NCBI GenBank assembly: GCA_947088345.1
Contig: CAMUGE010000029.1
Location: 1 to 42,172, forward strand
DNA from: an uncultured Roseburia sp.
GTDB lineage: Bacteria; Bacillota; Clostridia; Lachnospirales; Lachnospiraceae
Reading direction: 5' to 3'
DNA: 42,172 bases
Positions within the stretch are counted from its first letter, which is position 1; every line of letters begins with the position of its first letter. Of the stretch, positions 10,034-37,408 are shown one piece after another. The position numbers and the translations under genes are program-made. Under the pieces are notes generated by a model. The model was not told the origin of the DNA. It was given only the letters and a program-made list of their open reading frames with translations, and ran no database searches.

Positions 10034-11347
10034 TTACTGTAACAGGTCTGTCTTAACGTAACCTGTTTTATCATTCCATTTTACCTTTGTCCAGCCTTCC
10101 GCATAACTCATAATCACCGTCAGCTTTTCTCCGTCAAATGCTATTCCGACCTTTTCGGATGTCTCGCTCATGCTGGCACGTATATTCACTGCACCTGATA
10201 CCGTAATCACACTGCCCTCCGCCAGAGAACCTGCCGTGGTATTTGTATTATTTTCCTCCTGCTGCGGCGCGGATACTTCGGTTTCACTCAAAAATTCGGT
10301 TTTCACATAGCCGTTCTTTCCATTGTAGCTGACAGCGGTCCATTCGCCTTCCTCCCCTGTCTTAGTAACGGCGGCGCCTGTCTCCAGTAACTCAAGCACC
10401 TCGGATTCGGTACTGGCCGCGGCGCGCATCCTGACGCCCTCTTTCACATAAAGTGTCTGCGACGGCTCTTCCGGCTGCTGATCGTTATTCTCATTTGTCG
10501 GCAGCTCTTCCGGCTGCTGGTCATTGTTTTCGCTTGCCGGCGGCTGCTCCGGCTGTTGTGTATCCGACGACTGTCCCGGCAGCACCACTGTCTTTTTCCA
10601 CTCTGAAATTGCCGTGCCCAGTGCGGAGACGACGGTATTTAAATTTTCATCCGAAACTTTGGCGCCGTTGTACTTCTCCAACACTTCCTGCCGCAGAGCA
10701 AGCACATCCTCCTCCTCCTCAAAAGTATCCACTTTCGCCTTGATATCCGGATTGCGCTCATATTCATTGGTTTTATCATTATAGGGACTGTAACTGTTGT
10801 CAATATACAGCGCGCCGTTCTCATCCGCCTGTACATAGAAAAAGTCAAGGCTTGGGCCAACCGTGTCCACATTTAAAAATTTTACTTCTATATAGGCTGA
10901 TACAAGGTAGGAATTTTCGGTAATCCCTTTCTTGGTATAACATTTTAAATTCTGATACGATTCGACATACTGGCTGAACATCTGAATATAACTTTTCTCA
11001 TTGTCCGAAATCGGTTTAACAAGCTGTGACAGGGAATCAATATCACCGGCTGCGTATGCGGCATAATATCTGGAAATCAGATCGTTCACCGGCTGATAAG
11101 CGTCAACTTCGTACTTCTCCGCCTGCGGCTGCTCCGGCGCTGTCTGCGTATCGTCCGCCGAGTTAACGGCCTCCGTCTGCGGCGTATCCAAATCACTCTC
11201 TCCGGACGGCCCCGCAAACTTTATCACGACAAACACAAGGATTAAAAGCAGCACGCCCGCCGAAATATATTTGATGTTTTTCTGTAAAAAAGCGACAACT
11301 TTATTAAGGCCTTCGTTGGAAGGCGTATTTTTATCTGAACTACCCAT
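10034..11347 (-). CDS. Membrane-anchored protein with two SH3b domains
   Basis: The frame stays open upstream to 11701, but that extension reads through the tRNA-Arg gene and cannot be protein. The start at 11347 (MGSSDKNTPSN) has a weak GGTGG site. The 437-residue protein has a short cytoplasmic N-terminus, one membrane helix (about 27-46), an acidic linker, an extracellular NTF2-like region (about 80-200), a low-complexity linker with the repeat ENNDQQPEE, and two bacterial SH3 domains (about 298-355 and 378-437). SH3b domains commonly bind peptidoglycan or its peptides, so a cell-wall-sensing or wall-attached role is likely. It is monocistronic. The function is inferred only from architecture. 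Confidence 0.85.
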   Translation of the reverse strand: MGSSDKNTPSNEGLNKVVAFLQKNIKYISAGVLLLILVFVVIKFAGPSGESDLDTPQTEAVNSADDTQTAPEQPQAEKYEVDAYQPVNDLISRYYAAYAAGDIDSLSQLVKPISDNEKSYIQMFSQYVESYQNLKCYTKKGITENSYLVSAYIEVKFLNVDTVGPSLDFFYVQADENGALYIDNSYSPYNDKTNEYERNPDIKAKVDTFEEEEDVLALRQEVLEKYNGAKVSDENLNTVVSALGTAISEWKKTVVLPGQSSDTQQPEQPPASENNDQQPEELPTNENNDQQPEEPSQTLYVKEGVRMRAAASTESEVLELLETGAAVTKTGEEGEWTAVSYNGKNGYVKTEFLSETEVSAPQQEENNTNTTAGSLAEGSVITVSGAVNIRASMSETSEKVGIAFDGEKLTVIMSYAEGWTKVKWNDKTGYVKTDLLQ

Positions 11348-21491: not shown

Positions 21492-21558
21492 TGCGGCGTG
21501 AACCCCAGTATATCTAAGCGCTCTCTGTCATGCGCTTTGCATATACTTTTCACACCGC
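21492..21558. repeat. Diverged member of the 82-bp foldable repeat family
   Basis: This 67-bp segment has outer arms TGCGGCGTGAA and TTCACACCGCA and inner arms AGTATAT and ATATACT. Read on the minus strand, it shares GTGAAAAGTA, then CATG-x-CAGAG-x-GC, with the four repeats in the pilus locus at 28.9-30.7 kb, but it lacks their second inner hairpin. It lies between the convergent aroF and MATE genes and could also stop transcription. Confidence 0.6.
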
Positions 21559-25701: not shown

Positions 25702-27156
25702 ATGGCTACAATAATCGGTGACGGCATTACTTTTGATGATGTGCTCTTAGTACCGCTCTATTCGGAGGTGACTCCAAACATGATTCAGCTGAATACACAG
25801 CTGACAAAGGCAATCTCTCTTAATATCCCTATGATGAGCGCAGCAATGGATACTGTTACGGAACACAGGATGGCAATCGCTATGGCAAGACAGGGCGGCA
25901 TCGGCATTATCCATAAAAATATGTCTATCCAGGCTCAGGCAGACGAAGTAGACAAAGTAAAACGTTCCGAAAACGGTGTAATTACCGATCCGTTTTTCCT
26001 TTCTCCGGATCATACTTTACAGGACGCAGAAGATCTGATGCGAAAGTTTCGTATTTCCGGCGTTCCAATCTGTGAAAACGACAAACTTGTCGGCATTATC
26101 ACAAACCGCGACTTAAAATTCGAGACAGATTTCACCAAAAAAATCAGTGAGAGTATGACCTCCAAAAACCTGATCACTGCCCCTGAAGGAATCACCCTTG
26201 ACGATGCAAAACAAATTCTGGCCAAAGCTCGCAAAGAAAAACTTCCGATTGTAGATAAAGATTTCCATTTAAAAGGATTAATCACGATAAAAGATATTGA
26301 AAAACAGATCAAATACCCTCTCTCGGCAAAAGACTCCCTGGGCCGGCTGTTATGCGGCGCCGGTGTCGGCATAACCGGAAATATGATGGAGCGAATCGAG
26401 GCGCTTGTAAAAGCGCATGTCGATGTAATCGTTGTGGATTCCGCACACGGCCATTCCAAGAACATTATCGAAGCCGTTAAACAAATTAAAACGGTTTATC
26501 CCGACCTGCAGGTTATTGCCGGCAATGTAGCGACAGGCGAAGCCACACGCGATCTGATCAACGCCGGTGCGGATGCCGTCAAAGTCGGTATCGGACCCGG
26601 ATCGATCTGCACTACACGTATTGTCGCAGGTATAGGAGTGCCGCAGATCACCGCGCTAATGGATTGCTACAACGCCGCAAAAGATTCCGACACCCCTATT
26701 ATCGCCGACGGTGGAATCAAATATTCCGGCGATATGACCAAAGCATTGGCTGCCGGAGCAAACGTCTGCATGATGGGCAGCATCTTCGCCGGCTGCGATG
26801 AAGCCCCGGGAACATTCGAGTTATACCAGGGCAGAAAATACAAAGTGTACCGTGGCATGGGTTCTCTTGCCGCCATGGAAAACGGAAGTAAAGACCGCTA
26901 TTTCCAGGAGGGCGCTAAGAAACTTGTTCCGGAAGGCGTAGAAGGCCGTGTTGCCTACAAAGGGACTGTTGAAGATACCGTATTCCAGCTTGTCGGAGGT
27001 ATACGCTCCGGTATGGGCTACTGTGGCTGCCCCACAATCGAGGATTTAAAAACCAAGAGCAAGTTCGTTAAAATCTCTGCTGCCGCGCTTCGCGAAAGCC
27101 ATCCGCATGATATCCATATCACAAAGGAAGCGCCAAATTACAGCATAGACGAATAA
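25702..27156 (+). CDS. guaB: IMP dehydrogenase
   Basis: It oxidises IMP to XMP, the committed step of GMP synthesis, with NAD+. The 484-residue protein opens with [15 protein letters not shown], has two CBS domains inserted at about residues 93-205, and carries the catalytic loop [15 protein letters not shown] with the nucleophilic Cys. The mobile flap region around [11 protein letters not shown] and the later [10 protein letters not shown] are also intact. The start follows GTGAGGAAAACA. It is the first gene before the CNNM/CorC gene, 28 bases downstream, so the two may be co-transcribed. Purine synthesis genes purCFB lie about 10 kb away. Confidence 0.97.
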
Positions 27157-27184
27157 TCAAAATTTATATTGAGGTGAACATATT

Positions 27185-28462
27185 TTGGACCCTGTGGCCA
27201 TATTTCAAATTATTTTATTATTTATTTTACTGTTATTGTCTGCGTTCTTTTCTTCCGCAGAGACTGCCCTGACTACTTCCAACAAAATCAGGCTTCGCTC
27301 CATGGCGGAGGAAGGAGATAAACAGGCACAGCGGGTACTGCGTATCACAGAAAATTCCGGTAAGATGTTAAGCGCTATCTTAATCGGAAATAACCTTGTC
27401 AATATTTCCGCATCGTCAATTGCAACTTCTCTCGCAATCAAACTCTGGGGAAGTGTGGGAGCCGGCGTCGCTACCGGTATTTTGACGATTCTGGTATTGA
27501 TTTTCGGTGAAATTTCCCCGAAAACAATGGCCACAATCTATGCGGACAAAATTGCACTGCGGTATGCCGGAATGATTGAGTTTCTGATGAAGATGCTCAC
27601 CCCGTTTATCTTTATTATTAATAAACTGTCTATGGCATTTTTATTTCTGATGCGTGTAGACCCCAACGCCGGCAACCAGTCAATGACGGAAGAAGAGTTA
27701 CGCACTATTGTAGACGTAAGCAAAGAATCAGGAGTTATCGAATCGGAAGAACACGAAATGATTAATAACCTGTTTGATTTTTCCGACGCACAGGCAAAAG
27801 AAGTTATGATTCCCCGCATAGATATGACATTTGCCAATGTCAACAGTTCTTATGAGGAACTGATCTCCATCTTCAAAGAAGATAAATTTACACGACTCCC
27901 TGTTTTCGAGGAAACAACCGATAACATTATCGGTATACTTAATATGAAAGATCTGCTGCTTGCAGAAAATAAAGAAAATTTTTCCGTACGCACAATTATG
28001 CGTGAGCCGTATTTTACCTACGAGCACAAAAATACAGCTGAATTATTTATTGAAATGCGCAAATCCTCCATCTCCATTGCGATTGTCCTCGACGAATACG
28101 GCGCGACTGCAGGACTGATTACATTAGAGGATTTGTTAGAGGAAATTGTCGGCGAGATACGTGACGAATATGATACCGACGAGGAAGATTCCATCCAGCA
28201 TCTAAGCGCAAATGAATTTCTGGTGCAGGGTTCCGCCAATCTGGAAGATTTATGTCAGGAATTAGATCTTCCGTTTGTATCAGAAGACTATGATACCATT
28301 GGCGGATATTTAATCGGTCTTTTTGATCATGTGCCGGAACAACAGGAAAGTATGATTACAGATGATCATATCCTGTTGCGCGTAGAGCAAATGGACAAAA
28401 ACCGAATTGAAAAAATTTATATCAAAAAACCGGATGAACCGCAGGAAGATTTCGAATCTTAA
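27185..28462 (+). CDS. CNNM/CorC-type membrane protein with CBS domains
   Basis: This 425-residue protein belongs to the CNNM/HlyC/CorC family, tied to Mg2+ or Co2+ export. Domains in order: an N-terminal DUF21 membrane domain (about 1-190) with SAFFSSAETALTTSNKIRL, two CBS domains (about 205-325) with VMIPRIDMTFAN and VLDEYGATAGLITLEDLLE, and a C-terminal CorC_HlyC domain. The start is a TTG at 27185, with GAGGTG eight bases upstream. Its stop overlaps the stop of the convergent gene at 28459 by four bases. Ion specificity is not settled by sequence. Confidence 0.92.
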   Translation: MDPVAIFQIILLFILLLLSAFFSSAETALTTSNKIRLRSMAEEGDKQAQRVLRITENSGKMLSAILIGNNLVNISASSIATSLAIKLWGSVGAGVATGILTILVLIFGEISPKTMATIYADKIALRYAGMIEFLMKMLTPFIFIINKLSMAFLFLMRVDPNAGNQSMTEEELRTIVDVSKESGVIESEEHEMINNLFDFSDAQAKEVMIPRIDMTFANVNSSYEELISIFKEDKFTRLPVFEETTDNIIGILNMKDLLLAENKENFSVRTIMREPYFTYEHKNTAELFIEMRKSSISIAIVLDEYGATAGLITLEDLLEEIVGEIRDEYDTDEEDSIQHLSANEFLVQGSANLEDLCQELDLPFVSEDYDTIGGYLIGLFDHVPEQQESMITDDHILLRVEQMDKNRIEKIYIKKPDEPQEDFES

Positions 28463-28848
28463 TTTTCATTTGTAAACGGTTTATCCCAGATTACAGTCCG
28501 GCTGCTTTCCGTACTCCCCCGTTTTCCGTTTGGATAAACAAACTGTTCCACAACTCGTACAGAAAGCAGCCCCTTTTTTGCATCCAATGCTCCGACTTCC
28601 ACAACAAGATCCGACACGGTATCATTTGCCATTACAATCTGCCCGATAAAGTCGGCAAGCATCTCCTCATTTCCATAGGGAATACTACCATCCTCCCGAA
28701 TCAATCCGTCTACTGTCTGTTCCGCCGCCGAAGACAGATTGCTTTTAACTTCAACCGAACGGTTCATTCTTCCCGAAACTGCAAATATCATACCCATCGT
28801 CAGCACCCCCAAAGTAACGCTTACCATAATCATTACAATATTTTTCAC
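28459..28848 (-). CDS. Small anchored protein of the Tad-like locus
   Basis: A GTG start at 28848 is chosen because GGAGG stands just before it; an ATG four codons upstream would contain that site. The 129-residue product has an N-terminal hydrophobic helix (about 3-24, KNIVMIMVSVTLGVL) and then a soluble domain with beta-strand-like segments. This is the plan of TadE-like minor pilins or pseudopilins. I cannot assign a named family. It is the last gene of the pilus locus, and the 82-bp repeat copy A lies 88 bases upstream of its start. Its stop overlaps that of the convergent CNNM gene. Confidence 0.7.
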   Translation of the reverse strand: MKNIVMIMVSVTLGVLTMGMIFAVSGRMNRSVEVKSNLSSAAEQTVDGLIREDGSIPYGNEEMLADFIGQIVMANDTVSDLVVEVGALDAKKGLLSVRVVEQFVYPNGKRGSTESSRTVIWDKPFTNEN

Positions 28849-28901
28849 ACTAACCTCCATCTCGCGGCTCTGCCGCGACTCAAATCTGCGCGGAGAATCC
28901 A

Positions 28902-28917
28902 ACGCCATACATGGCGT
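28902..28917. repeat. Short GC palindrome before the last pilus gene
   Basis: ACGCCA and TGGCGT form a tight hairpin between repeat copy A and the 28848 start. A second palindrome, TCGCGGC/GCCGCGA (28862-28878), stands directly before the ribosome site of that gene. Confidence 0.5.
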
Positions 28918-28935
28918 GTTTTTGGGGATTCTCTG

Positions 28936-29017
28936 GCGTGAAACTTAGTACTTGTTGGCGCGCGAACCTGTTTCGCGTTTTGCTCTCTGGCATGAGCCTT
29001 TCAAGTACTTTTCACGC
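28936..29017 (-). repeat. 82-bp foldable intergenic repeat, copy A
   Basis: On the sense (minus) strand GCGTGAAA-AGTACTTG pairs with CAAGTACT-AAG-TTTCACGC, a 16-bp stem with a three-base bulge. Inside lie a CGCGAA/TTCGCG hairpin and a small GCC/GGC hairpin, giving a branched fold. Copy A differs from copies B-D by one base in the small hairpin. It is preceded on the minus strand by an ATTCCGC palindrome (29029-29045) and GGAGGTTA, which would start a four-codon frame (GTG AAA AGT ACT TGA) within the repeat. Confidence 0.85.
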
Positions 29018-29059
29018 TAACCTCCATAATTCCGCTCCGCGGAATCTCTTATCCGTATG

Positions 29060-29084
29060 AAAAACGCCTGTTTTTAGCGTTTTT
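29060..29084 (-). terminator. Terminator-like hairpin between pilus genes
   Basis: AAAAACGC and GCGTTTTT form an inverted repeat whose right arm ends in a run of U on either strand. It lies just after the 29127 gene and could reduce, without abolishing, read-through to the last gene. Confidence 0.5.
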
Positions 29085-29126
29085 CGGCGTGAAACCTAAA
29101 ATTTCTGTTTCACATAAATTGACTTG

Positions 29127-29615
29127 TCAGTCACTGCCTACCGGTATGGAAAATTCGCATACATTTTTTCTGTTATTCTCATCAGCCGCAGATACCCTGA
29201 CACAGTAAATACCGTCCGTCACAAACTCAAACAAGGTCAAACTGTCTCCCGCGCCATCCGAAGATAACTGCAGTCCATCCGGATTAAAACACGCAATAAT
29301 ACGAATCGGCAGTACATTGCCATTATAATCATATGCATGAATATAATCCGCCAGATCACATGTTCCGACCGTCAATACCTGTTCGTCATCATAAACAATC
29401 TGAGGCTTTCTATATTCTCCCTCCGCCGCATAATTTTTAAAATCCATATATTCATCATAAACAATATTTCCGGTGTCGGTCCTCGCTCCTGCCACATAAA
29501 AGATTCCTGTATTGCCGCTATGGTCCGCGACACCATAAAACAAAAATGTCAAAAGCGTTACTACGACAGCTGCCTCAAGCAGCGCTTTTCCATATGTATC
29601 GAAAATCAGTTTCAT
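29127..29615 (-). CDS. Anchored Tad-locus protein with YG motif
   Basis: The start at 29615 follows GGAGGGGG; six earlier codons are not used. The 162-residue product begins MKLIFDTYGKALLEAAVVVT, a hydrophobic helix that carries the same Y-G-x-A-[LI]-L pattern as the tiny proteins at 30374 and 33933. The remainder is a soluble domain with two cysteines in the middle (VGTCDLADYIH, IIACFNPDG) and a third near the end (KNVCEFSIP). It is probably a larger pilin-like or pseudopilin subunit of the same system. I recognise no named family. Confidence 0.7.
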   Translation of the reverse strand: MKLIFDTYGKALLEAAVVVTLLTFLFYGVADHSGNTGIFYVAGARTDTGNIVYDEYMDFKNYAAEGEYRKPQIVYDDEQVLTVGTCDLADYIHAYDYNGNVLPIRIIACFNPDGLQLSSDGAGDSLTLFEFVTDGIYCVRVSAADENNRKNVCEFSIPVGSD

Positions 29616-29834
29616 TCTATCCCCCTCCTCCACACGCCGCAGTCTCGCTGCTGCTTAAATCCGCTAAATAATCCAACACTGCGCACAGCATATTTTCAGG
29701 GGATTCTCTGGTGCGGATCCTATTCACACCAGAAATTTCGTACGCCTATGCGCGTAATCTGTTCCGCGATAACGCTCCAGCTGTGATCCCCCGGAACCCC
29801 CTTGATTTCGCTCCGTGGAATCTCTTAGCCGTAT
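29616..29834. other. Intergenic region with degenerate repeat pieces
   Basis: It contains the palindrome GATTTCGC/GTGGAATC (29804-29822), a decayed stretch resembling the spacer DNA near 28.9 kb, and no gene on either strand that I can support. Confidence 0.4.
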
Positions 29835-29879
29835 AAAAAACGCCATGTGACGTTTACGTAACATTTTTTTGGCGTTTTT
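29835..29879 (-). terminator. Terminator-like hairpin between pilus genes
   Basis: AAAACGCC and GGCGTTTTT enclose an inner ATGTGACGT/ACGTAACAT palindrome. The right arm ends in U5 on the plus strand, and the left arm gives a U run on the minus strand. It abuts repeat copy B. Confidence 0.5.
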
Positions 29880-29881
29880 CG

Positions 29882-29963
29882 GCGTGAAACTTAGTACTTG
29901 TTGGCGCGCGAACCTGTTTCGCGTTTTGCCCTCTGGCATGAGCCTTTCAAGTACTTTTCACGC
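29882..29963 (-). repeat. 82-bp foldable intergenic repeat, copy B
   Basis: This copy has the perfect outer arms GCGTGAAA/TTTCACGC and AGTACTTG/CAAGTACT and both inner hairpins. It starts 23 bases after the stop of the 49-residue gene. Confidence 0.85.
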
Positions 29964-29986
29964 TACTTCTCTTTACACTGTGGTCT

Positions 29987-30136
29987 TTAATTTCCGCATA
30001 CAGAATACATAAACGCAGCTGCAAGATCACAAATCAATCCCTTATTGTGCCAAAACACTGCAATAATTCCAAACATACAAAACGCTGTTACCAGATGCAA
30101 AAATCCCGTGCCAAAATAGTCTGTAATTTGTCTCAT
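29987..30136 (-). CDS. 49-aa membrane protein of the Tad-like locus
   Basis: The start at 30136 follows GGGGGTTAATGAT and a perfect GC hairpin (GCCGCAG/CTGCGGC). The product MRQITDYFGTGFLHLVTAF continues through one or two hydrophobic helices and ends AAAFMYSVCGN. Its DYFGTGFL segment is aligned in position with the YG-x-A-L-L motif of its neighbours, so it may be a diverged member of the same small pilin-like family. Its longer frame upstream crosses repeat-rich DNA and is not credible. I recognise no named family. Confidence 0.6.
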   Translation of the reverse strand: MRQITDYFGTGFLHLVTAFCMFGIIAVFWHNKGLICDLAAAFMYSVCGN

Positions 30137-30214
30137 ATCATTAACCCCCATGCCGCAGCTTTTCTGCGGCTCAAAACTATGCGAAGATATCGCTAATCTC
30201 CGATTAACCCCCAC

Positions 30215-30233
30215 GATTCCGCTCCGCGGAATC
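30215..30233. repeat. 19-bp palindrome GATTCCGC-tcc-GCGGAATC
   Basis: A perfect 8-bp inverted repeat with a three-base loop. Other copies are at 29029-29045 (ATTCCGC/GCGGAAT), 29804-29822 (weaker) and 30623-30641. On the sense strand each is followed within a few bases by a GGAGG- or GGGGG-like purine run. Confidence 0.7.
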
Positions 30234-30246
30234 ACTTATCCGTATG

Positions 30247-30290
30247 AAAAACGCCATGTGACGTTTACGTCACATTTCTTTGGCGTTTTT
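30247..30290 (-). terminator. Terminator-like hairpin between pilus genes
   Basis: AAAAACGCCA and TGGCGTTTTT enclose an inner ATGTGACGT/ACGTCACAT palindrome, more perfect than the copy at 29835. It abuts repeat copy C. Confidence 0.5.
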
Positions 30291-30292
30291 CG

Positions 30293-30374
30293 GCATGAAA
30301 CTTAGTACTTGTTGGCACGCGAACCTGTTTCGCGTTTTGCCCTCTGGCATGAGCCTTTCAAGTACTTTTCACGC
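30293..30374 (-). repeat. 82-bp foldable intergenic repeat, copy C
   Basis: It is nearly identical to copies B and D. One outer-arm base differs (GCATGAAA), which leaves a G-U pair on the minus-strand RNA but an A-C mismatch on the plus-strand RNA. The first base of the element on the minus strand is the last base of the stop codon of the 35-residue gene. Confidence 0.85.
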
Positions 30375-30481
30375 TAAAAAGTTGTTGAATACAGATAGAG
30401 CAGAGAAAACATAAAAATAATTGCCGTTCCCGCGAGAAGACCCAACAATGCTTCTCCATATTCTTCTATGATGATATCCAT
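30374..30481 (-). CDS. 35-aa pilin-like membrane peptide with YG motif
   Basis: The start at 30481 follows ATGGGGATTAAT and a TGCGAA/TTCGCA hairpin. The product opens MDIIIEEYGEALLGLLAG, then is almost wholly hydrophobic and ends LLYLYSTTF. The E-Y-G-E-A-L-L stretch matches MKLIFDTYGKALLE (29615) and MKHYGNAIL (34097), with an acidic residue before the helix as in Flp-type prepilins. No canonical processing glycine is obvious. It is likely a minor subunit or an assembly peptide of the pilus. Short length limits certainty. Confidence 0.6.
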   Translation of the reverse strand: MDIIIEEYGEALLGLLAGTAIIFMFSLLYLYSTTF

Positions 30482-30622
30482 ATTAATCCCCATTTCTGCA
30501 TTGCGAACGCAGTTCGCATTCACTTTATTTGCATAAGCGACTTTGTGGCAAGCCATTTATGGCTTTGAAGCGCACAATACAAATCGCCGTTTGAAAAATT
30601 TATTTTACACGCTAACCAACAT

Positions 30623-30641
30623 GATTCCGCTTTGCGGAATC
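30623..30641. repeat. 19-bp palindrome GATTCCGC-ttt-GCGGAATC
   Basis: Perfect 8-bp inverted repeat, a copy of the element at 30215. On the sense strand it follows repeat copy D after 11 bases and is followed by ATGTTGGTTAGCGTG. Confidence 0.7.
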
Positions 30642-30652
30642 TCATATCAAGA

Positions 30653-30734
30653 GCGTGAAACTTAGTACTTGTTGGCGCGCGAACCTGTTTCGCGTTTTGC
30701 CCTCTGGCATAAGCCTTTCAAGTACTTTTCACGC
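30653..30734 (-). repeat. 82-bp foldable intergenic repeat, copy D
   Basis: It starts two bases after the stop codon of the 117-residue-frame gene (30737). The outer arms are perfect. One loop base differs from the other copies (CATAAGCC instead of CATGAGCC). Confidence 0.85.
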
Positions 30735-30736
30735 TA

Positions 30737-31072
30737 TTATCTTGCAATCCCTCTTGTTGTCTTTGTCTCTGAAATTCCAAGCACCGGTATACAATAAGTA
30801 TACGACAAAATCACTTCCGCCATCTGTACTTCATTCCACGCATCATAGGAACACCCCAATACTTGTAGTGTGTATCCTGCTTCTGCAGCCTGCGCGATAC
30901 ACCCCTGTATCACTTTGGGATTAAAATTACTGTTCTCAATCTCTGCTACGACAGCAGCTTTATATTCTTTCGCCGCCGCAACATCAGCATTAACTGTAAT
31001 CATACCAATACACAGAAACACATTTAAGAGAAGTACAAACAAAATACTAAACGCGCCTATCACATGCTTCAT
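30737..31072 (-). CDS. TadE/DUF4320-like anchored protein
   Basis: The start at 31072 follows GGGGGATATCA. The 111-residue product begins with a hydrophobic helix (MKHVIGAFSILFVLLLNVF), then VNADVAAAKEYKAAVVAEIE and a small soluble domain ending TTRGIAR. This plan, an N-terminal helix, an alpha-helical A/E/K segment and a compact beta domain, fits the TadE/DUF4320-type pseudopilins found in clostridial Tad loci. It is the first gene after the TadBC fusion. The family call is by resemblance and moderately sure. Confidence 0.65.
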   Translation of the reverse strand: MKHVIGAFSILFVLLLNVFLCIGMITVNADVAAAKEYKAAVVAEIENSNFNPKVIQGCIAQAAEAGYTLQVLGCSYDAWNEVQMAEVILSYTYCIPVLGISETKTTRGIAR

Positions 31073-31304
31073 TGATATCCCCCGTTTCAAAAATATGACT
31101 TATCTACACGATTCTGTTCCGTAAAATCTCAAGTATGCACGATAAGATCTAATCGCACTAATCTCCATGTCGACGCTGCGCCGCTACTCAAACCAGAATG
31201 AGAAACCTCTGTTTCCGGTGTTTTCAGGAGTAAAACTTAGAAATACTTTTCTCATGTTAACCTTGGGACGCGGCTGATTCGCATCTCAAATCACTGCGGA
31301 GATT
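31073..31304. other. Intergenic region with collapsed repeat copy E
   Basis: At 31227-31256 the minus strand reads CATGAGAAAAGTAT then TTCTAAGTTTTACTCC. This matches the two outer ends of the 82-bp repeat with the whole interior missing. Twice in this gap a TTTGAG, a GC-rich inverted repeat and a purine run follow each other, as upstream of several other genes here. No gene is seen. Confidence 0.5.
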
Positions 31305-32843
31305 CTAACCGCTCATACTGCCGAGCAGCCGAAACATAACAGCCATGCCAACTGTCAGATCTACTAAAAGTTTTGCAGTCGCAGCAATCACCGGATAGGC
31401 AAAGATCATCTTCATTCGCAGCGCAATGGACTCGTTCCTGATCTGATCTGCAATGCTCTGCATTTCGTTTACTCTCTGTATAAAATGAGCCATCTGTATC
31501 CGCACATCACCGCTTCCGGTTTCCGAAATTGCATGCATCATCTTCATACAGCCCGCTACTTCCGGAAGATCATATTCGCGGCAGAAATCTGTATAGACAC
31601 AAAGTTCTCCGGGCATCCGGCCGGATCTTTCCAGCAATGCATCAATCTCGCTTTGCAGCGCTGCCGGCGCCCCTGCTCTTGATTTCTGTATTGCAATCTC
31701 AACATTGTTATTCTGCAATAACAATGCCATCTCCATCAACCATTGCGGCAATGCCAGATGCATTTCCTGTGTTATATCTTTCTTTGCCAGACGGTACCCG
31801 ATTCTTTTCGAAAACAATACAAACAACCCAAAAGTCAGGGCAATTGCCCCCGGTATCCAGTGCCGCTTCGAAAAACAGAACCCGACCAAAACCATAAATG
31901 GAATAGAACACAACAGACCTTTTTTATATGCGTTCCTTTTATCGTAACGAAAAACTGTGTCGTAACACTGTTTGATATATGCGCTGTCACGGAAATTTTC
32001 TTCTGTCAGCCAATCCGCAGTCAGGCTTTTTGAGCTTTTAGAAAACACATGATACAAAAAAAGGATAAAAAATGCTGAAGAAATCTGTATCGTTCCAATA
32101 CGAAATATCACAATCGAACTTTCCGCTGCAAACATTGTTTTCATTGCATCCAATACATACAGCGCTGCCGCACACATCATTGTTGCCACCACAATTGATA
32201 CCACATTATCCGTATGGCTCTTTTTCTTATCCGCCTGCAGTCGATATCCTCTTTTTTTCCATGATTCCAGATCTTCCAGCAGAATTATCACAGAAGACTC
32301 GACTTCTCCGCCATATTCCTCTGCATTCAGCAGCAAGTCATGCACCATCTGCATCTTACGGCAGTTATAATTTTCTTCGATTAGCTGAAACCCCTCTCGC
32401 AAAATTCCCTGGTCAGACCTCGTTTTACCCTGTTCAATATGTTCGACTGCAGCCTGTATGGCAGATCGCATCATTCCTGCCTCAAATAGTGCGCAGCTTT
32501 CCCGCAGAGAACTGATAATCTTTCCCGTTTTTAAAAAAGAATATAACATCTGTTCCATATAAGCAGCTGCGTCCGCAAATCGCTTTTGTTCGTACATCTT
32601 TTTGTACATGTTTAATATCAATACCGGAAGCATTACAATCGCTGCCAAAATCACAACAGTCAGCCAGAAAACAGAGAGCTTAAATAAAAGCCCGACAGTC
32701 CCTATACCGGTCAGTGTCGCTACCATCAGCATAAACTGTAATTTCCACGAAAAATGATAACCGTATATATGCACTTCCTTCGCAAGATTTTTATGACGCA
32801 GAAGCTTAAGATTCTCCCAAACATCTCTTTTCTTTTTTCTCAT
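31305..32843 (-). CDS. TadB-TadC fusion: pilus inner-membrane platform
   Basis: The start at 32843 overlaps the TadA stop in an ATGA arrangement and has AGAGGG upstream. The 512-residue protein has two halves, each with membrane helices and a cytoplasmic T2SF-type helical domain. The first contains YMEQMLYSFLKTGKIISSLRE; the second (in part) LPQWLMEMALLLQNNNVEIA and GSGDVRIQMAHFIQRV. In most Tad systems these are separate proteins, TadB and TadC, forming the platform on which the ATPase acts. Here one protein carries both, so it is a fusion or a two-domain homologue. No frameshift is visible at the join. Confidence 0.8.
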   Translation of the reverse strand: MRKKKRDVWENLKLLRHKNLAKEVHIYGYHFSWKLQFMLMVATLTGIGTVGLLFKLSVFWLTVVILAAIVMLPVLILNMYKKMYEQKRFADAAAYMEQMLYSFLKTGKIISSLRESCALFEAGMMRSAIQAAVEHIEQGKTRSDQGILREGFQLIEENYNCRKMQMVHDLLLNAEEYGGEVESSVIILLEDLESWKKRGYRLQADKKKSHTDNVVSIVVATMMCAAALYVLDAMKTMFAAESSIVIFRIGTIQISSAFFILFLYHVFSKSSKSLTADWLTEENFRDSAYIKQCYDTVFRYDKRNAYKKGLLCSIPFMVLVGFCFSKRHWIPGAIALTFGLFVLFSKRIGYRLAKKDITQEMHLALPQWLMEMALLLQNNNVEIAIQKSRAGAPAALQSEIDALLERSGRMPGELCVYTDFCREYDLPEVAGCMKMMHAISETGSGDVRIQMAHFIQRVNEMQSIADQIRNESIALRMKMIFAYPVIAATAKLLVDLTVGMAVMFRLLGSMSG

Positions 32844-33904
32844 TTTCCCTCTTTCATGTAGTCCTCCCAGTGCTCGCACACAAACGGATGCCTGATTTTT
32901 GCATGTATAAATTTCCGTATGATTTCCATTGGCAGATTAGCCGAAACAAGCTTGCCGTCCTTTACAATCATATAGATTCTGTTTTCTCTTTCTTCTCTGC
33001 TGTAAAAACACAGCTGGTCAATATAACGTTTCGGCAGTCCCTTTTCATCCTGTATGCAACGAATCAGTACGCCTACATTGACATACCGGTAGATGCGGTT
33101 TTCCATACGATCTGCGTCATGTACACTTTCCATCATATTCTGGATTCGGTCAGGAAGCTTGCGAAGGTCGTCCAGATGAATTGTCGTAAAGCCGTTTACG
33201 CCGGTGCTCCACTGTTCTAACAGCGACGTTACCTCGGTGGAACGCGCTTCTGATAAAATCAGCCATTTGGGATTCTGTCTCAAACACGCCTTGATCGCAT
33301 CCGTATAGGTAAACCCTGCGCCAATGCGAAGTTCAACCGTATCTGCCCCTGGATTTAGGTCCGCATAATGGATCTCAAGGGAATCCTCAATCGTAATGAC
33401 ACGTTCCTCTTTGGGAATAAACTGCATCAGAAATTTCGCACACTCCGTTTTTCCTGCGCCCGGTTCTCCGCCAAACACAAAATTCATTCGTGCAAGTACA
33501 CAGTTAATCAGCAACTGCAGTACTTCCTTTCTGCAATATTCGGCCTGAATCATATCCGAAATCCGATTGCGCACAATACAGGGCGACTTTCGGATACAGA
33601 TACTTGTCCCCGACATCGCCGCCGAAGCATGTATAATGCTGATGCGCAGCTCTTTTGTATCTGCTTCCAAAATACGGTTTGCGTTGTTAAACTGGCGATT
33701 CACACAATTTGAAATATTATGTGTAAACGCATTCACAAAATTCTCTGTAATTTCTTCTTTTGCCATGTAACGACCTTTTTTTAAGTCAGTGATCCACAGC
33801 TGCGTTCCATTATAATCTACATCCGTTACGTCCGCTTCCCTGATATATTTCCAAAAAACACCAAACTGCTCTTTTGTCGGTTCATAGTTGAGAATTTCAC
33901 TCAT
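32840..33904 (-). CDS. tadA: TadA/CpaF-type pilus assembly ATPase
   Basis: This hexameric secretion ATPase powers Tad/Flp pilus assembly. The 354-residue protein has Walker A GGEPGAGKT (residues 145-153), an Asp box in TIEDSLEIHY (171-180), Walker B WLILSEARSTE (about 214-224) and a His box in TTIHLDD (240-246). It is shorter than typical CpaF (about 450 residues) because the N-terminal region is reduced. The ribosome site at 33904 is weak. It lies between the tiny pilin-like gene and the TadBC fusion, as expected in the locus. Confidence 0.9.
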   Translation of the reverse strand: MSEILNYEPTKEQFGVFWKYIREADVTDVDYNGTQLWITDLKKGRYMAKEEITENFVNAFTHNISNCVNRQFNNANRILEADTKELRISIIHASAAMSGTSICIRKSPCIVRNRISDMIQAEYCRKEVLQLLINCVLARMNFVFGGEPGAGKTECAKFLMQFIPKEERVITIEDSLEIHYADLNPGADTVELRIGAGFTYTDAIKACLRQNPKWLILSEARSTEVTSLLEQWSTGVNGFTTIHLDDLRKLPDRIQNMMESVHDADRMENRIYRYVNVGVLIRCIQDEKGLPKRYIDQLCFYSREERENRIYMIVKDGKLVSANLPMEIIRKFIHAKIRHPFVCEHWEDYMKEGK

Positions 33905-33932
33905 AACTGTCTCGTATCTCTTTCTCTATCTG

Positions 33933-34097
33933 TCATGTTAATTTATTCATGCTGCTGAAAAAGCCTGTCAGCGCAGTGCGAAATTCCGTCGCCACATACC
34001 CATTGGAGGAAAGTGCAGCCACCAAAATGGCGCCAAGAGCCAGTAAAACAATCACCGCCAAAATTGCATTTCCATAATGCTTCATTACCTGTTCCAT
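33933..34097 (-). CDS. 54-aa Flp-like pilin candidate
   Basis: This short gene has AGGAG upstream and a choice of two ATGs; 34097 is preferred because the ribosome site is too close to the one at 34103. The product MEQVMKHYGNAILAVIVLLA is a hydrophobic helix with the locus's YG-x-A-I-L motif, followed by GAILVAALSSNGYVATEF and a short helical tail. Size, single N-terminal helix and position just before the ATPase fit a Flp-type major pilin or its small partner. No canonical prepilin peptidase site is clear. The abundance of the product cannot be judged from sequence. Confidence 0.75.
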   Translation of the reverse strand: MEQVMKHYGNAILAVIVLLALGAILVAALSSNGYVATEFRTALTGFFSSMNKLT

Positions 34098-34119
34098 AAA
34101 CATACTCTCCTTTTCTTTT

Positions 34120-34722
34120 CTAATAAAATTTGCTGATTTCTCGCTGAAACAAAAAAACGGTGCGTCTCAATTCATCATTTAACATCTTGTTTTTTTCACT
34201 TCGTTTTACACTTCGTTTTAAAAATTTTGCGGCCTCTCTTCGCTCCGCAGCGTCCTGAAATTCATTGTTATATGGAATAACAGCTATATTGCCAGCGTCA
34301 ATCCGATATGTTTTTTCCATAAATCTCCGCAGGTTGGAAACTTCCCAATATCCTGAAACAAGAAAAACCGTACGTTCTTCTCTCCAGATTCCGTACTCTC
34401 CAAAATGTTCCCATCCATAGCTGTCCCGATACAGATTGATCACTACCAGATCCGCCTCTCTGATTTGCCTGCGCGTCTTAGCGTCCGACCGGTTTCCACA
34501 GTCATAAAAGGAAACTTCTTTCTTACAGGAATTGCGTTTTTGTTTCGCTGTACCCCTTCCTGAGCGTCTTGCTGTTCTTTTTGGCTGTTCCGCATCCGGA
34601 TTGCGTCTGCGAAAAATACGTATTTGAACCGACGGCATATAAAAGGCCAGAAGTTCCGCAACAGTATACATATTCTGTGTAATCTCAAAAGGACTGATTT
34701 CACCCCAAAATACCACTTTCAT
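34120..34722 (-). CDS. TadZ/CpaE-position protein, degenerate
   Basis: This 200-residue protein is the first gene of the pilus locus, where TadZ/CpaE localisation ATPases normally lie. It opens MKVVFWGEISPFEITQNM, recalling the first strand of that family, but no P-loop (GKGGVGKT-like) follows. Instead there is a strongly basic segment at about residues 37-72. The second half has ADLVVINLYRD and ERTVFLVSGYWEVSNLR, like the strands of a MinD-like fold. It may be a non-hydrolysing positioning protein. The start follows GAAGAGAG. Confidence 0.55.
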   Translation of the reverse strand: MKVVFWGEISPFEITQNMYTVAELLAFYMPSVQIRIFRRRNPDAEQPKRTARRSGRGTAKQKRNSCKKEVSFYDCGNRSDAKTRRQIREADLVVINLYRDSYGWEHFGEYGIWREERTVFLVSGYWEVSNLRRFMEKTYRIDAGNIAVIPYNNEFQDAAERREAAKFLKRSVKRSEKNKMLNDELRRTVFLFQREISKFY

Positions 34723-35143
34723 GTGTTTCTCTCTTCCATATGTATTCTTGGAAAATGCTCTTAAACAAAATACTTCCGGCTCAAATCATCCCTGCAGATG
34801 ATATATGTTTTGAGTACAAGTATTTCAAGTGCAATTCCTCTGTCTTATATTTACTTTAAAATAATCGGGTAATTCATTAAGAAACTTCTGCTGACCCGGC
34901 AAACATCCGCCGCCTGATTCAGAGTAAAATAATTGATGTTAGAAATTCAGATCATATGACGTACGTTCCAGAGATTTTGAATGTTAAATTATTTCTACAA
35001 TTGATCTGTTCCTGAAATTTCCGATCTTTAATTTCTGATCGCTCATTACTGTCTTCAAACTGTTTGTTCCCGGAATTTCTGATCTTAGAATTTGTGTTCC
35101 TTGATTTTCTGTTCTTTGATTTTCTGATTTGTTCAAAAGATAT
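34723..35143. other. Upstream region of the pilus locus with imperfect repeats
   Basis: No gene can be supported. A minus-strand frame (34952-35167) is Asn/Lys/Ser/Arg-rich and periodic, reflecting repetitive DNA, and has no ribosome site. The plus strand holds two adjacent 15-bp near-repeats, TGTTCCTTGATTTTC (35095-35109) and TGTTCTTTGATTTTC (35110-35124), within a wider series of TTTCTGATC-like units. The pilus operon promoter should lie here; I could not place it with confidence. Confidence 0.4.
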
Positions 35144-35281
35144 GATTATAATACTTCTCAATTCCACATTTGTAAAGCAATAAATATATTTTTGTGATAT
35201 TGCACAAAAAGCGATAGCAAAAAAAGGGGAATATTTGATTCCCCTTCTCCCGATTACACATTAATTTCCGCTTTGACTCCC
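35144..35281. repeat. Left 138-bp target duplication flanking the IS
   Basis: This segment appears identical base for base to 37271-37408. It contains a second copy of the last 26 bases of purB, including the stop codon (35254-35256 region), and a second copy of the purB terminator hairpin. It is the junction created by the insertion, not a gene. Confidence 0.9.
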
Positions 35282-35329
35282 GGGAGTTTGACACTTCTTT
35301 TTAACATCATATCGCAAAAATCCTTTATT

Positions 35330-35354
35330 TAAGCCCATCAAGGCTTATTTTTTT
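35330..35354 (+). terminator. Terminator inside the IS left end
   Basis: TAAGCC and GGCTTA form a short stem followed by seven T. It would block transcription entering from the left flank before the transposase gene. Confidence 0.6.
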
Positions 35355-35435
35355 GTCAAATTTTTTAAAATAGTATGTGCGCTTTTGTACGCTTTGTTGT
35401 ATAATAAGATTATATCACGAAAGGAGCTGTTTCGT

Positions 35436-37181
35436 ATGTATATCTCACTTACAGGTAATTCAGATAACAAAGACGTCTATATTAAACGCTCATACCGTAA
35501 AAGCAATGGAAAAACTGCTACTCAGATCCATCGAAAACTTGGAAAGCTGAATGAACTCTTAGAACAGTTTTCCGGGGACTTTGATGCTATGATGGCATGG
35601 GCAAAATCAGAGGCAGAAAAAGAAACCATGGAATACAACGCTAAAACAGGCAGTGTTACAGTTTCTTTATCAAGAAGCGCTTATATCCCTAAAAATGAAG
35701 AACGCTGTTTTCAGATTGGTTATCTGTTCTTCCAAAAACTGTGCACGGAATTAAAAATCGATTCCATTTGTCGAAAGATTTCTAAACGCCACAAATACAC
35801 TTATGATTTCAGCGCAATTCTTACTGACCAGATTTTCTCAAGAATCCTGGCGCCTTCCAGCAAACTGGGCAGTTACTCTTACTGCCAGACGCTGCTTGAA
35901 CCGCCTAAGTATGAACTGCAGAACATCTACCGCGCACTATCCGTTATGGCCGAAGAATCCGACTTTATTCAGGAGGAACTATATCACAATTCAAGCTTCG
36001 TGCATCCGAGAAGCCAGAAGATTCTTTACTACGACTGTACGAATTATTACTTTGAAATTGAACAGGATGATGATTTTAGAAAGTATGGAAAAAGCAAAGA
36101 AAACAGGCCAAATCCCATCGTTACAATGGAATTGTTTATGGATGCTGATGGAATTCCCCTTGCTTTTGATGTGTTCCCAGGAAATCAGAATGAACAGACG
36201 ACCTTAAAACCGTTGGAAACAAAGATCATACGTGACTTTACATGCAGCGAGTTTATCTTCTGCTCGGATGCCGGGCTTGGCAGTAAGGCAAACCGCAGGT
36301 TTAACAGCTTTGGAAACCGTTCCTATGTCATTACACAATCCCTGAAGAAGATGCGCGGGGAAGACCGGCAGATTGCCTTGAATCCAAAACAGTTTCGCAG
36401 ACTTGGTTCCGATAAATTCATCGATATATCCACTCTTGATGAATCCGATCCTGATATTTATGAAGCAATGTTTTACAAGGAAGTGCCTGTTGTAAATGGA
36501 AACATGGATGAAACTGTCATTGTAACCTACTCTCCAAAATACAAGGCATACCAGAAGCGGATCCGTCAGCAACAAATATCACGTGCCATAAAAATGATCG
36601 GGCAGCCCGGAAAGAAACGCAAAGGCAAAAACCAGAATGATCCTGCCCGTTTTATCAAAGCCACAAATGTGACAAATGATGGAGAAATCGCAGAAAAGAA
36701 AGTCTGTGAGCTTGATTTAGACAGGATCCGGGAGGAGGAAAAGTATGACGGCTTTTATGCTGTCATTACAAACCTCGAAGACGATATACGCGGGATTTTA
36801 AAAATCAACCGGCAGCGTTGGGAAATAGAAGAAAACTTCCGCATTATGAAAACAGATTTTGGGGCACGTCCTGTCTATGTCAGGCGGGAAGACCGCATCA
36901 AAGCACATTTCCTCACCTGTTACATCAGCCTGCTTGTATATCGCCTGCTTGAGAAAAAGGTCGGAAATAATTATACCTGTAATGAGATTCTAAGTACACT
37001 TCGTTCCATGCAGGTAACACTTTTGTCAAAGGAAAGCGGCTATATCCCTTCTTACAAGAGAACAGTTCTGACGGATGATTTACACAAGGCATTTGGCTTT
37101 CATACGGATTATGAATTTATTTCAAAATCAGCCATGCGGAGCATAATAAAAAGTACCAAAACAGAAGAAGTAAAAAAATAG
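35436..37181 (+). CDS. IS1634-family DDE transposase
   Basis: The start at 35436 follows AAAGGAGCTGTTTCGT; the frame opens 17 codons earlier without a ribosome site. The 581-residue protein has the DDE layout of the IS4 superfamily: first Asp in YYDCTNYYFEIEQ, second in FIFCSDAGLGSKANR, and the Glu of the C-terminal motif in RWEIEENFRIMKTDF. It catalyses cutting and joining of the IS ends. No frameshift or internal stop is seen, so it is probably active. Confidence 0.92.
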   Translation: MYISLTGNSDNKDVYIKRSYRKSNGKTATQIHRKLGKLNELLEQFSGDFDAMMAWAKSEAEKETMEYNAKTGSVTVSLSRSAYIPKNEERCFQIGYLFFQKLCTELKIDSICRKISKRHKYTYDFSAILTDQIFSRILAPSSKLGSYSYCQTLLEPPKYELQNIYRALSVMAEESDFIQEELYHNSSFVHPRSQKILYYDCTNYYFEIEQDDDFRKYGKSKENRPNPIVTMELFMDADGIPLAFDVFPGNQNEQTTLKPLETKIIRDFTCSEFIFCSDAGLGSKANRRFNSFGNRSYVITQSLKKMRGEDRQIALNPKQFRRLGSDKFIDISTLDESDPDIYEAMFYKEVPVVNGNMDETVIVTYSPKYKAYQKRIRQQQISRAIKMIGQPGKKRKGKNQNDPARFIKATNVTNDGEIAEKKVCELDLDRIREEEKYDGFYAVITNLEDDIRGILKINRQRWEIEENFRIMKTDFGARPVYVRREDRIKAHFLTCYISLLVYRLLEKKVGNNYTCNEILSTLRSMQVTLLSKESGYIPSYKRTVLTDDLHKAFGFHTDYEFISKSAMRSIIKSTKTEEVKK

Positions 37182-37201
37182 CACAAATCGTTTCCAAAGA
37201 G

Positions 37202-37247
37202 AAAGTGGCTGCAGACCGCATAATTACTGGGTCTGTAGCCACTTTTT
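37202..37247 (+). terminator. Transposase gene terminator
   Basis: AAAGTGGCTGCAGACC and GGTCTGTAGCCACTTT form a nearly perfect 16-bp stem followed by T, 20 bases after the transposase stop and just inside the IS right end. Confidence 0.85.
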
Positions 37248-37270
37248 GATTTCACAAGTGTCAAACTCGG

Positions 37271-37408
37271 GATTATAATACTTCTCAATTCCACATTTGT
37301 AAAGCAATAAATATATTTTTGTGATATTGCACAAAAAGCGATAGCAAAAAAAGGGGAATATTTGATTCCCCTTCTCCCGATTACACATTAATTTCCGCTT
37401 TGACTCCC
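37271..37408. repeat. Right 138-bp target duplication, containing the purB end
   Basis: Identical by eye to 35144-35281. This copy joins the rest of purB and therefore keeps the gene whole. Confidence 0.9.
37344..37373 (-). terminator. purB operon terminator
   Basis: AAGGGGAAT and ATTCCCCTT form a perfect 9-bp stem with a five-base loop. On the minus strand a run of seven U follows. It lies eight bases after the purB stop and exists twice because of the IS duplication. Confidence 0.9.

What the first reader, a model, noticed from the sequence alone, without database searches (positions are those of the whole stretch)
28936..30734. Four near-identical 82-bp branched-fold repeats inside one small-protein pilus locus
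Copies at 28936, 29882, 30293 and 30653 are the same length and differ by one or two bases each. Each sits at a gene end, in three cases within 25 bases of the stop (in copy C the stop codon and element share a base). Each can fold as a 16-bp bulged stem holding two hairpins. Near-identity suggests recent spread or conversion. Position suggests a role in mRNA processing or in setting different levels of each pilus protein. One substitution (copy C) keeps pairing only on the sense RNA, while another (copy A) keeps it only on the antisense RNA, so strand is undecided. I know no named family with this sequence.
Basis: partly seen in the sequence, partly recalled or inferred. Interest (0 to 1): 0.75.

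Follow-up and report, generated by a model that had tools for sequence, protein, structure and literature searches.

The report
Mobile RNA-like linkers at gene ends
The four repeats belong to an apparently unnamed family of small, foldable DNA inserts that some gut bacteria of the Lachnospiraceae carry between neighbouring genes, where an insert often supplies the stop signal of the gene before it and sometimes the ribosome-binding site of the gene after it.

Summary
In detail: four 82-bp copies, 1-2 bases apart, that fold well. But they are no pilus feature. They are this species' form (extra hairpin) of a 65-nt covarying hairpin, HP3, with 88 matches in this genome and a patchy spread in Lachnospiraceae. 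HP3 starts a ~150-nt module: HP3, second hairpin, short hairpin, CATGGRGGTTA (a Shine-Dalgarno site). Modules repeat in tandem between genes, nearly always in sense: in codirectional pairs 50 sense, 2 antisense here; 49 and 0 in other species; 0 of 63 and 0 of 62 arrays inside a called gene. In other species 37 of 55 upstream genes have their stop codon inside the element. A script puts the Shine-Dalgarno site of 23 of 52 downstream genes here in a module (19 after my check by eye). Sites differ between relatives: of 25 dxr-rseP loci only this genome's has a match at the junction, and dxr now ends in element-coded residues. RAYT transposase and reverse transcriptase genes were not found in the two richest draft genomes; the mover is unknown. 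Best reading: a non-autonomous mobile repeat family, alike in kind to BOX or ERIC, that enters at ORF ends. Effects on expression are inferred. No Rfam match.

The parts
28936..29017 (-). HP3 copy A (82 nt, three-hairpin form)
   Evidence: (47.1 bits)
29882..29963 (-). HP3 copy B; 23 nt after the stop of the ORF whose stop is at 29987
   Evidence: (47.2 bits)
30293..30374 (-). HP3 copy C; its first G is the last base of the TAG stop of the small ORF ending at 30374
   Evidence: (44.2 bits)
30653..30734 (-). HP3 copy D; 2 nt after the TAA stop of ORF 31090-30737
   Evidence: (44.9 bits)
28893..28933 (-). HP2 hairpin following copy A (GAGAATCC...GGATTCTC arms)
   Evidence: read; hairpins after HP3 as a class counted
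28862..28878 (-). HP1 hairpin TCGCGGCAGAGCCGCGA of the unit of copy A
   Evidence: read
28854..28858 (-). Shine-Dalgarno GGAGG at the end of the unit of copy A; followed by GTGTGAAAAATATT, where the GTG at 28848-28846 is a likely start of the next gene
   Evidence: read; the script picked another start here
29018..29126 (-). Remnant of a second unit upstream of copy A (partial HP3, HP2, HP1, GGAGGTTA)
   Evidence: read; not reported by R1
30492..30612 (-). T4 end module (ends GCGAACTGCGTTCGCAATGCAGAA) after the HP1 of copy D's unit
   Evidence: read; context counted
30488..30491 (-). Shine-Dalgarno GGGG at the end of the T4 module, 6 nt before ATG at 30481-30479
30145..30149 (-). Shine-Dalgarno GGGGG after an HP1-like hairpin (30152-30170), before ATG at 30136-30134
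30243..30292 (-). HP2 hairpin following copy C, with a nested hairpin
   Evidence: read
29831..29881 (-). HP2 hairpin following copy B, with a nested hairpin
   Evidence: read
21496..21555 (-). Weak, diverged HP3-like match elsewhere in the window (29 bits)

Best explanation
The repeats are copies of a modular, non-autonomous mobile repeat of gut Lachnospiraceae. One unit, read on the gene strand, is HP3 (65-82 nt hairpin, branched in this species) - HP2 - linker - HP1 - CATGGRGGTTA. Units enter at or just behind the 3' end of a reading frame, in the sense direction. Two of the three frames running into the element meet a stop within 19 nt (TA|G or TAA in one, TGA of GYGTGA in another), so the upstream frame often ends there; the last 11 nt carry a Shine-Dalgarno site that the next gene can use. 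An insert between two genes of an operon can thus be compatible with translation. Arrays grow and shrink, probably by recombination between units. Shown here: covarying fold, sense orientation, stop overlap, module Shine-Dalgarno sites next to starts, presence/absence at orthologous sites. Inferred: that a trans-acting enzyme moves it, that the RNA fold (protection, processing or spacing) alters expression, and that selection on translation explains the orientation.
For: Copies: 88 HP3 matches here in 63 arrays, 0 of 63 inside a called gene. Orientation: 50 arrays between two genes both sense to the element, 2 between two antisense genes; 62 arrays of other species, 0 inside, 49 and 0; neighbouring copies within 250 bp, 27 pairs same strand and 0 opposite. 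Stop: in other species 37 of 55 sense upstream genes have the stop inside the element (overlap 1 nt: 16, 6 nt: 13, 19 nt: 5, 56 nt: 3) and 9 more within 4 nt before it. Shine-Dalgarno: the script puts 23 of 52 in a module, 4 of 81 genes away from arrays have such a context; by eye 4 of the 23 are doubtful. Structure: A1, 98.1% of cells paired, 11 of 25 pairs with double changes, covariation 0.295 against 0.112 shuffled and at most 0.058 slid; A3, 96.3%, 21 of 25, 0.393 against 0.142 and at most 0.092 (rows fitted to the model). Presence/absence: at dxr-rseP 1 of 25 loci has a match at the junction, G000's, whose dxr ends CEKSF from the element; at the oadG end 5 of 30 loci, two of them weak; G051 has no match between the flanks in 8 of 16 comparable G000 arrays, three of which share one gap. 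Patchy: 17 of 62 genus genomes.
Against: No mover was found: Y1_Tnp and RVT_1 matches are absent from the two richest genomes, and no insertion sequence with matching ends was identified. No regular target-site duplication: C1:70598 shows TAGTGTGA on both sides, but the empty site of G051 has it too, so deletion in G051 is possible there. The third frame stays open past 90 nt in 46 of 90 copies here and 29 of 91 elsewhere, so the element is no full three-frame stop. Of 52 downstream genes 19 used another Shine-Dalgarno site and 10 had none found; some AATGGAGG sites are native, as G051 has them without an array (C23). In this genome 24 of 54 first copies with an upstream ORF have no stop within -10 to +20. 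Gene calls are from my own script. Loci of other species were fetched by the conserved core and so favour intact copies. G-U against A-C is even in this genome (45:42).
Confidence: 0.7

Rival explanations
1. A cis-regulatory RNA (mRNA stabiliser, RNase processing site or attenuator) kept by selection at operon junctions; copies are kept alike by gene conversion and differences between species are losses.
For: Strong compensatory change across species, sense orientation, a hairpin of 8 or more pairs right after HP3 in 73 of 90 and 73 of 89 copies, against 12 and 20 before it and 38 and 29 at random places.
Against: Patchy: 17 of 62 genus genomes, 19 of 348 family genomes. The same junctions exist without it: 24 of 25 dxr-rseP and 25 of 30 oadG loci have no R1 match there. 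No common gene function beside it (read).
Confidence: 0.14
2. A classical MITE: HP3 alone is the mobile unit, its arms being terminal inverted repeats, moved by a DDE transposase of an insertion sequence in the same cell.
For: HP3 arms are long inverted repeats; copies within a species are alike and species differ.
Against: The extra piece in G000 at dxr and C1:70598 is a whole unit with HP2 and HP1, which has no inverted ends; the one transposase examined (IS1634 family) has other ends by eye. Other insertion sequences were not examined.
Confidence: 0.1
3. REP/REPIN-like element moved by a RAYT (Y1) transposase.
For: Palindromic, extragenic, high copy, in composite arrays. Y1_Tnp is present in 7 of the 17 carrier genomes (15 of the 45 others).
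Against: Y1_Tnp 0 in G000 and G051, the two genomes with most copies; copies in arrays all on one strand.
Confidence: 0.03
4. HP2 and HP3 are ordinary intrinsic terminators at transcript ends.
For: Some HP2 forms have A-tract, GC stem and T-tract; terminator-like hits in window 27000-35000: 18 against 6.2 in shuffles.
Against: 4 of 63 arrays lie between convergent genes, 50 between codirectional ones. None of the four HP3 copies is called as a whole; one hit (28960-28978, plus strand) is the inner hairpin of copy A on the antisense strand.
Confidence: 0.03

Closest known systems
BOX elements of Streptococcus pneumoniae
   Same: Modular, small, interspersed, predicted RNA fold, thought non-autonomous, can expand by their modules, can be co-transcribed with operons (passages of PMC3049150).
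   Different: Those passages report over-representation of the pneumococcal repeats between convergently transcribed genes, and that ORFs formed by BOX lack good Shine-Dalgarno sequences; here arrays lie mostly between codirectional genes in sense and end in a Shine-Dalgarno site. No sequence comparison was made.
ERIC and Correia elements
   Same: Intergenic inserts in transcribed regions that can change transcript stability or be cleaved, orientation mattering for ERIC (passages of PMC3049150 and PMC2229807).
   Different: The passages seen do not describe overlap with stop codons of upstream genes or a supplied Shine-Dalgarno site; hosts are enterobacteria and Neisseria.
REP/BIME/REPIN with RAYT
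   Same: High-copy extragenic palindromes in composite arrays.
   Different: No Y1_Tnp match in the two richest genomes; neighbouring copies all on one strand (27 of 27 pairs), whereas BIMEs alternate (abstract of PMC2817692 in the listing).
Candidate structured RNAs of human microbiomes (PMC8040213)
   Same: Found by comparative genomics; 250 of 3161 candidates palindromic (passages).
   Different: The main text does not mention Lachnospiraceae (0 occurrences); its supplementary tables were not read, so an unnamed overlap is possible.

Membership tests
Any Rfam 15 family | Covariance-model match | tested here: not met
   Window at gathering threshold: only a tRNA; 7 carrier loci at E<=1: none
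REP with RAYT | RAYT (Y1_Tnp) in the carrier genome | tested here: not met
   0 in G000 and G051, drafts 90.5% and 87% complete; present in 7 of 17 carriers
REP with RAYT | Copies in alternating orientation (BIME/REPIN) | tested here: not met
   27 neighbouring pairs within 250 bp on the same strand, 0 opposite
MITE | Terminal inverted repeats of the inserted unit | tested here: inconclusive
   HP3 has them; the whole extra unit at dxr and C1:70598 does not (read)
MITE | Target-site duplication | tested here: inconclusive
   TAGTGTGA on both sides at C1:70598, also in the empty site; none clear at the other sites (read)
MITE | Parent insertion sequence with matching ends | not tested
   Only the IS1634-family element of the window was looked at, by eye
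BOX element | boxA-boxB-boxC sequence modules of streptococci | not tested
   No BOX sequence was compared; modular logic alike
Retroelement moved by a reverse transcriptase of the same cell | Reverse transcriptase in the carrier genome | tested here: not met
   RVT_1 0 in G000 and G051; present in 29 of 62 genus genomes, 7 of them among the 17 carriers
Mobile repeat | Filled and empty orthologous sites | tested here: met
   dxr-rseP 1 of 25 loci filled, oadG 5 of 30; livF end and C21:5490
Conserved structured RNA | Compensatory base changes beyond shuffled and slid controls | tested here: met

The most novel reading that the evidence does not exclude
The element does not insert at random and survive by selection but is aimed at ends of reading frames in mRNA sense, for instance through an RNA-level or translation-termination-linked step, so that it enters at the stop codon (TA|G) and rebuilds stop and ribosome-binding site. 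That would be a mobile element whose target is the translated message rather than a DNA sequence.
Probability: 0.1. Interest if true: 0.88.

Novelty: new variant of a known kind. Interest (0 to 1): 0.64.

Why it matters
It would account for part of the intercistronic DNA in carrier species of a common gut family, give a mobile repeat suited to sit inside operons without breaking translation, and supply natural experiments (same gene pair with and without the insert) on what intercistronic RNA structure does to protein ratios. Gene ends coded by the element also show how C-termini can change in one step.

Tried and rejected
REP/RAYT: no Y1_Tnp match in the two rich genomes. Reverse transcriptase: none there. 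Rfam: none. Phage, plasmid and viral carriage: none found (exact pattern in viral contigs; plasmids; phages). Pilus-specific role: neighbours of many kinds (read). Coding of a peptide by HP3 was dropped without a formal test, since the frame opened by GTG stops early in the window copies (read). Integron attC sites came to mind (recalled) and were set aside without a test, since the copies are dispersed. Literature: nine searches listed no paper that by title and abstract start describes this family; only CC0, CC BY and CC BY-SA papers are held, and supplementary files were not read.

Rows dropped: one search was given 78 of the 85 loci L049-L105 and L208-L235. Left out: L054 and L089 (taken as near-duplicates), L208 and L226 (same places as L073 and L083), L216 (another copy from G399, left out without need), L218 and L223 (their matches do not start where I looked, so they were never inspected). 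Of rows matching the same place twice, the lower-scoring was dropped (94 to 90 and 101 to 91). One search called genes on 55 of the 57 genome-contig loci. One search read 30 of 59 genomes with an oadG match; one search read 24 and searched 25 of 40 genomes with a dxr match, 40 of 62 genus genomes having been searched. Eleven of the 19 family genomes have only weak matches (40-49 bits) and may hold look-alike hairpins; 8 of 348 have 62 bits or more. In one search, by eye, C6:62858, C17:34555, C23:11661 and C60:3800 are doubtful among the 23, while C1:62338 and window copy A were missed.
Full report
WHAT IS THERE. The window is contig 29 of an 80-contig, 3.05-Mb draft. The four 82-bp copies are as described and fold as described on both strands. 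The genes beside them run on the minus strand. The ORF at 32840-33904 matches Pfam T2SSE and, below their cut-offs, NCBIfam ATPase models including TadA and VirB11; the small ORFs tested match no Pfam or NCBIfam family at E<=0.001. So 'pilus locus' rests on that ATPase and on a neighbouring 524-aa protein that I read as TadB/C-like (one sub-threshold Pfam match only).

A GENOME-WIDE FAMILY. BLAST with one copy gives 53 matches in this genome and a match in 7 of 62 genus genomes. Read on the gene strand, there is a common 65-nt form without the third hairpin. An exact 22-base core pattern hit 57 stretches in the GTDB species genomes; the record titles say Lachnospiraceae, Acetatifactor, Roseburia, Blautia, Ruminococcus, Clostridium, Bacillus or Bacillota (titles of MAGs can be wrong). 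A covariance model R1 from 19 copies gives 88 matches at E<=0.001 in this genome (150 of 1309 candidates scored), matches at E<=0.01 in 17 of 62 genus genomes, 1 to 78 per genome (at most 84 candidates scored each), at E<=1e-6 in 19 of 348 family genomes (15 scored each; 8 of the 19 reach 62 bits or more) and in 3 of 341 class genomes, one of them outside the family with 71 bits. A contig of the closest rich relative, G051:C16, has the length of CAMUHN010000016.1, an uncultured Roseburia sp., so the genus is probably what NCBI calls Roseburia; this is an inference.

STRUCTURE. HP3 is an outer 8-bp stem, a 3-nt bulge, a 9-bp stem, a short stem, a two-against-three internal loop (UC/UUC) and a 5-bp hairpin. 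On the MAFFT alignment of 19 copies 98.1% of cells pair, 11 of 25 pairs show double changes, covariation 0.295 against 0.112 after shuffling and at most 0.058 when slid. The innermost hairpin is invariant there because the loci were chosen by it. On 101 model-aligned matches from other species (87 distinct), with more distant copies, 21 of 25 pairs show double changes, four of five in the innermost hairpin (that alignment is fitted to the model). Extra hairpins are found at three places in different genomes: in the 5' side, beside the core (the window's form) or at the outer bulge (read). Within a species the stems are mostly alike, between species they differ in compensated ways (CAMWBY has two stem types).

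THE UNIT. In sense, HP3 is followed within 0-6 nt by a hairpin of 8 or more pairs in 73 of 90 copies here and 73 of 89 elsewhere; before HP3 in 12 and 20, at random places of the same loci in 38 and 29 (the random rate is high, so the test is lenient). Then come a linker, a short hairpin HP1 and CATGGRGGTTA, after which the next unit or gene starts (read, whose output was cut in the middle). Other end modules, here called T4 and T5, finish with AATGGRG. Of 63 arrays, 23 hold two or three HP3 matches. The grouping asked for one strand, so I checked: within 250 bp there are 27 neighbouring pairs on the same strand and 0 on opposite strands.

POSITION. With my own gene of 63 arrays lie inside a gene; both neighbours are sense in 50, upstream sense and downstream antisense in 4, upstream antisense and downstream sense in 5, both antisense in 2, upstream missing in 2. 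In other species: 62 arrays, 0 inside, 49 both sense, 0 both antisense, 4 and 3 mixed, 6 with one neighbour missing. The upstream stop lies inside the element in 37 of 55 and within 4 nt before it in 9 more. A cruder ORF test puts the stop's last base on the element's first base in 14 of 54 here and 23 of 79 elsewhere, and within -10 to +20 in 30 and 59; the antisense control has no peak there but some chance stops inside the element. In this genome many arrays begin with another module type, which puts HP3 further from the stop. One frame is closed within 19 nt in 85 of 90 and 86 of 91 copies, a second by nucleotide 6 in 86 and 75, while the third is open past 90 nt in 46 and 29. A script puts the best Shine-Dalgarno site of the downstream gene in a module for 23 of 52 genes (16 AATGGRG, 7 CATGGRGG), elsewhere for 19, not found for 10; genes away from arrays show such contexts in 4 of 81. 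By eye I would keep 19 of the 23.

PRESENCE AND ABSENCE. At the oadG end, 30 junctions were read: G000, G051 and G033 have an HP3 at the stop codon (42 to 81 bits); G021 and G004 have partial sequence (31 and 22 bits); G020, G034 and G024 have other hairpins there, and G050 perhaps a decayed one; most of the rest have short spacers. At the dxr-rseP junction R1 finds a match in 1 of 25 loci, G000's (30 bits; the match in the G051 locus lies before dxr), and the end of dxr there reads CEKSF-stop from the element. KdpE-like genes of two other species end in CEKNF-stop in the same way (read; the gene name is recalled). Of 16 comparable arrays, 8 have no R1 match between the flanks in G051 and 8 have one or more, some made of other modules at the same stop. 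Copies B, C and D of the window fall in one such gap without a match; copy A's junction has one. Absence in one relative could be loss; at dxr the 24 other loci make gain in the G000 lineage the simpler reading.

MECHANISM. I take the element for a non-autonomous mobile repeat whose sense insertions between genes are tolerated because it often ends the upstream frame and offers a ribosome-binding site to the next gene. That the sense bias arises at insertion, not by selection, is open. G-U against A-C mismatches in the stems (45:42 here, 68:31 elsewhere) lean to the sense RNA only outside this genome. The mover is unknown: Y1_Tnp and RVT_1 matches are absent from G000 and G051, though both are drafts. 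No phage, plasmid or viral contig match was found.

KNOWN KINDS. It works like other small interspersed repeats in transcribed regions. From passages of PMC3049150, BOX is the nearest in build, but those repeats are over-represented between convergent genes and BOX-formed ORFs lack good Shine-Dalgarno sites. Nine paper searches listed no description of this family. I therefore call it a new variant of a known kind.

Noticed in passing
35144-37408: An IS1634-family transposase gene (35385-37181, NF033559 365 bits) is flanked by two identical 138-bp direct repeats (35144-35281, 37271-37408), as if insertion had duplicated 138 bp of target; long variable duplications are recalled as typical of this family.
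   Followed up: partly
L196 and L330, dxr end (G000:C35:18398-18463): The C-terminus of dxr is element-coded (CEKSF-stop), a one-step change of a housekeeping protein end.
   Followed up: yes
L216, L232 (genome G399): Another genus has at least 13 matches to a simpler 60-nt hairpin with the same outer stem and bulge and a following hairpin but no core loop; possibly a sister family.
   Followed up: partly
L247, L248, L252 (oadG junction of G020, G034, G024): Other, unrelated-looking hairpins occupy the same oadG junction in these genomes, hinting at a common landing place.
   Followed up: no
10460-10537: Two tandem 39-nt repeats, 77% alike; context not examined.
   Followed up: no
31090-31300: A decayed copy of the same kind of unit seems to lie between the ORFs 31090-30737 and 32879-31305 (read); R1 does not report it.
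   Followed up: no
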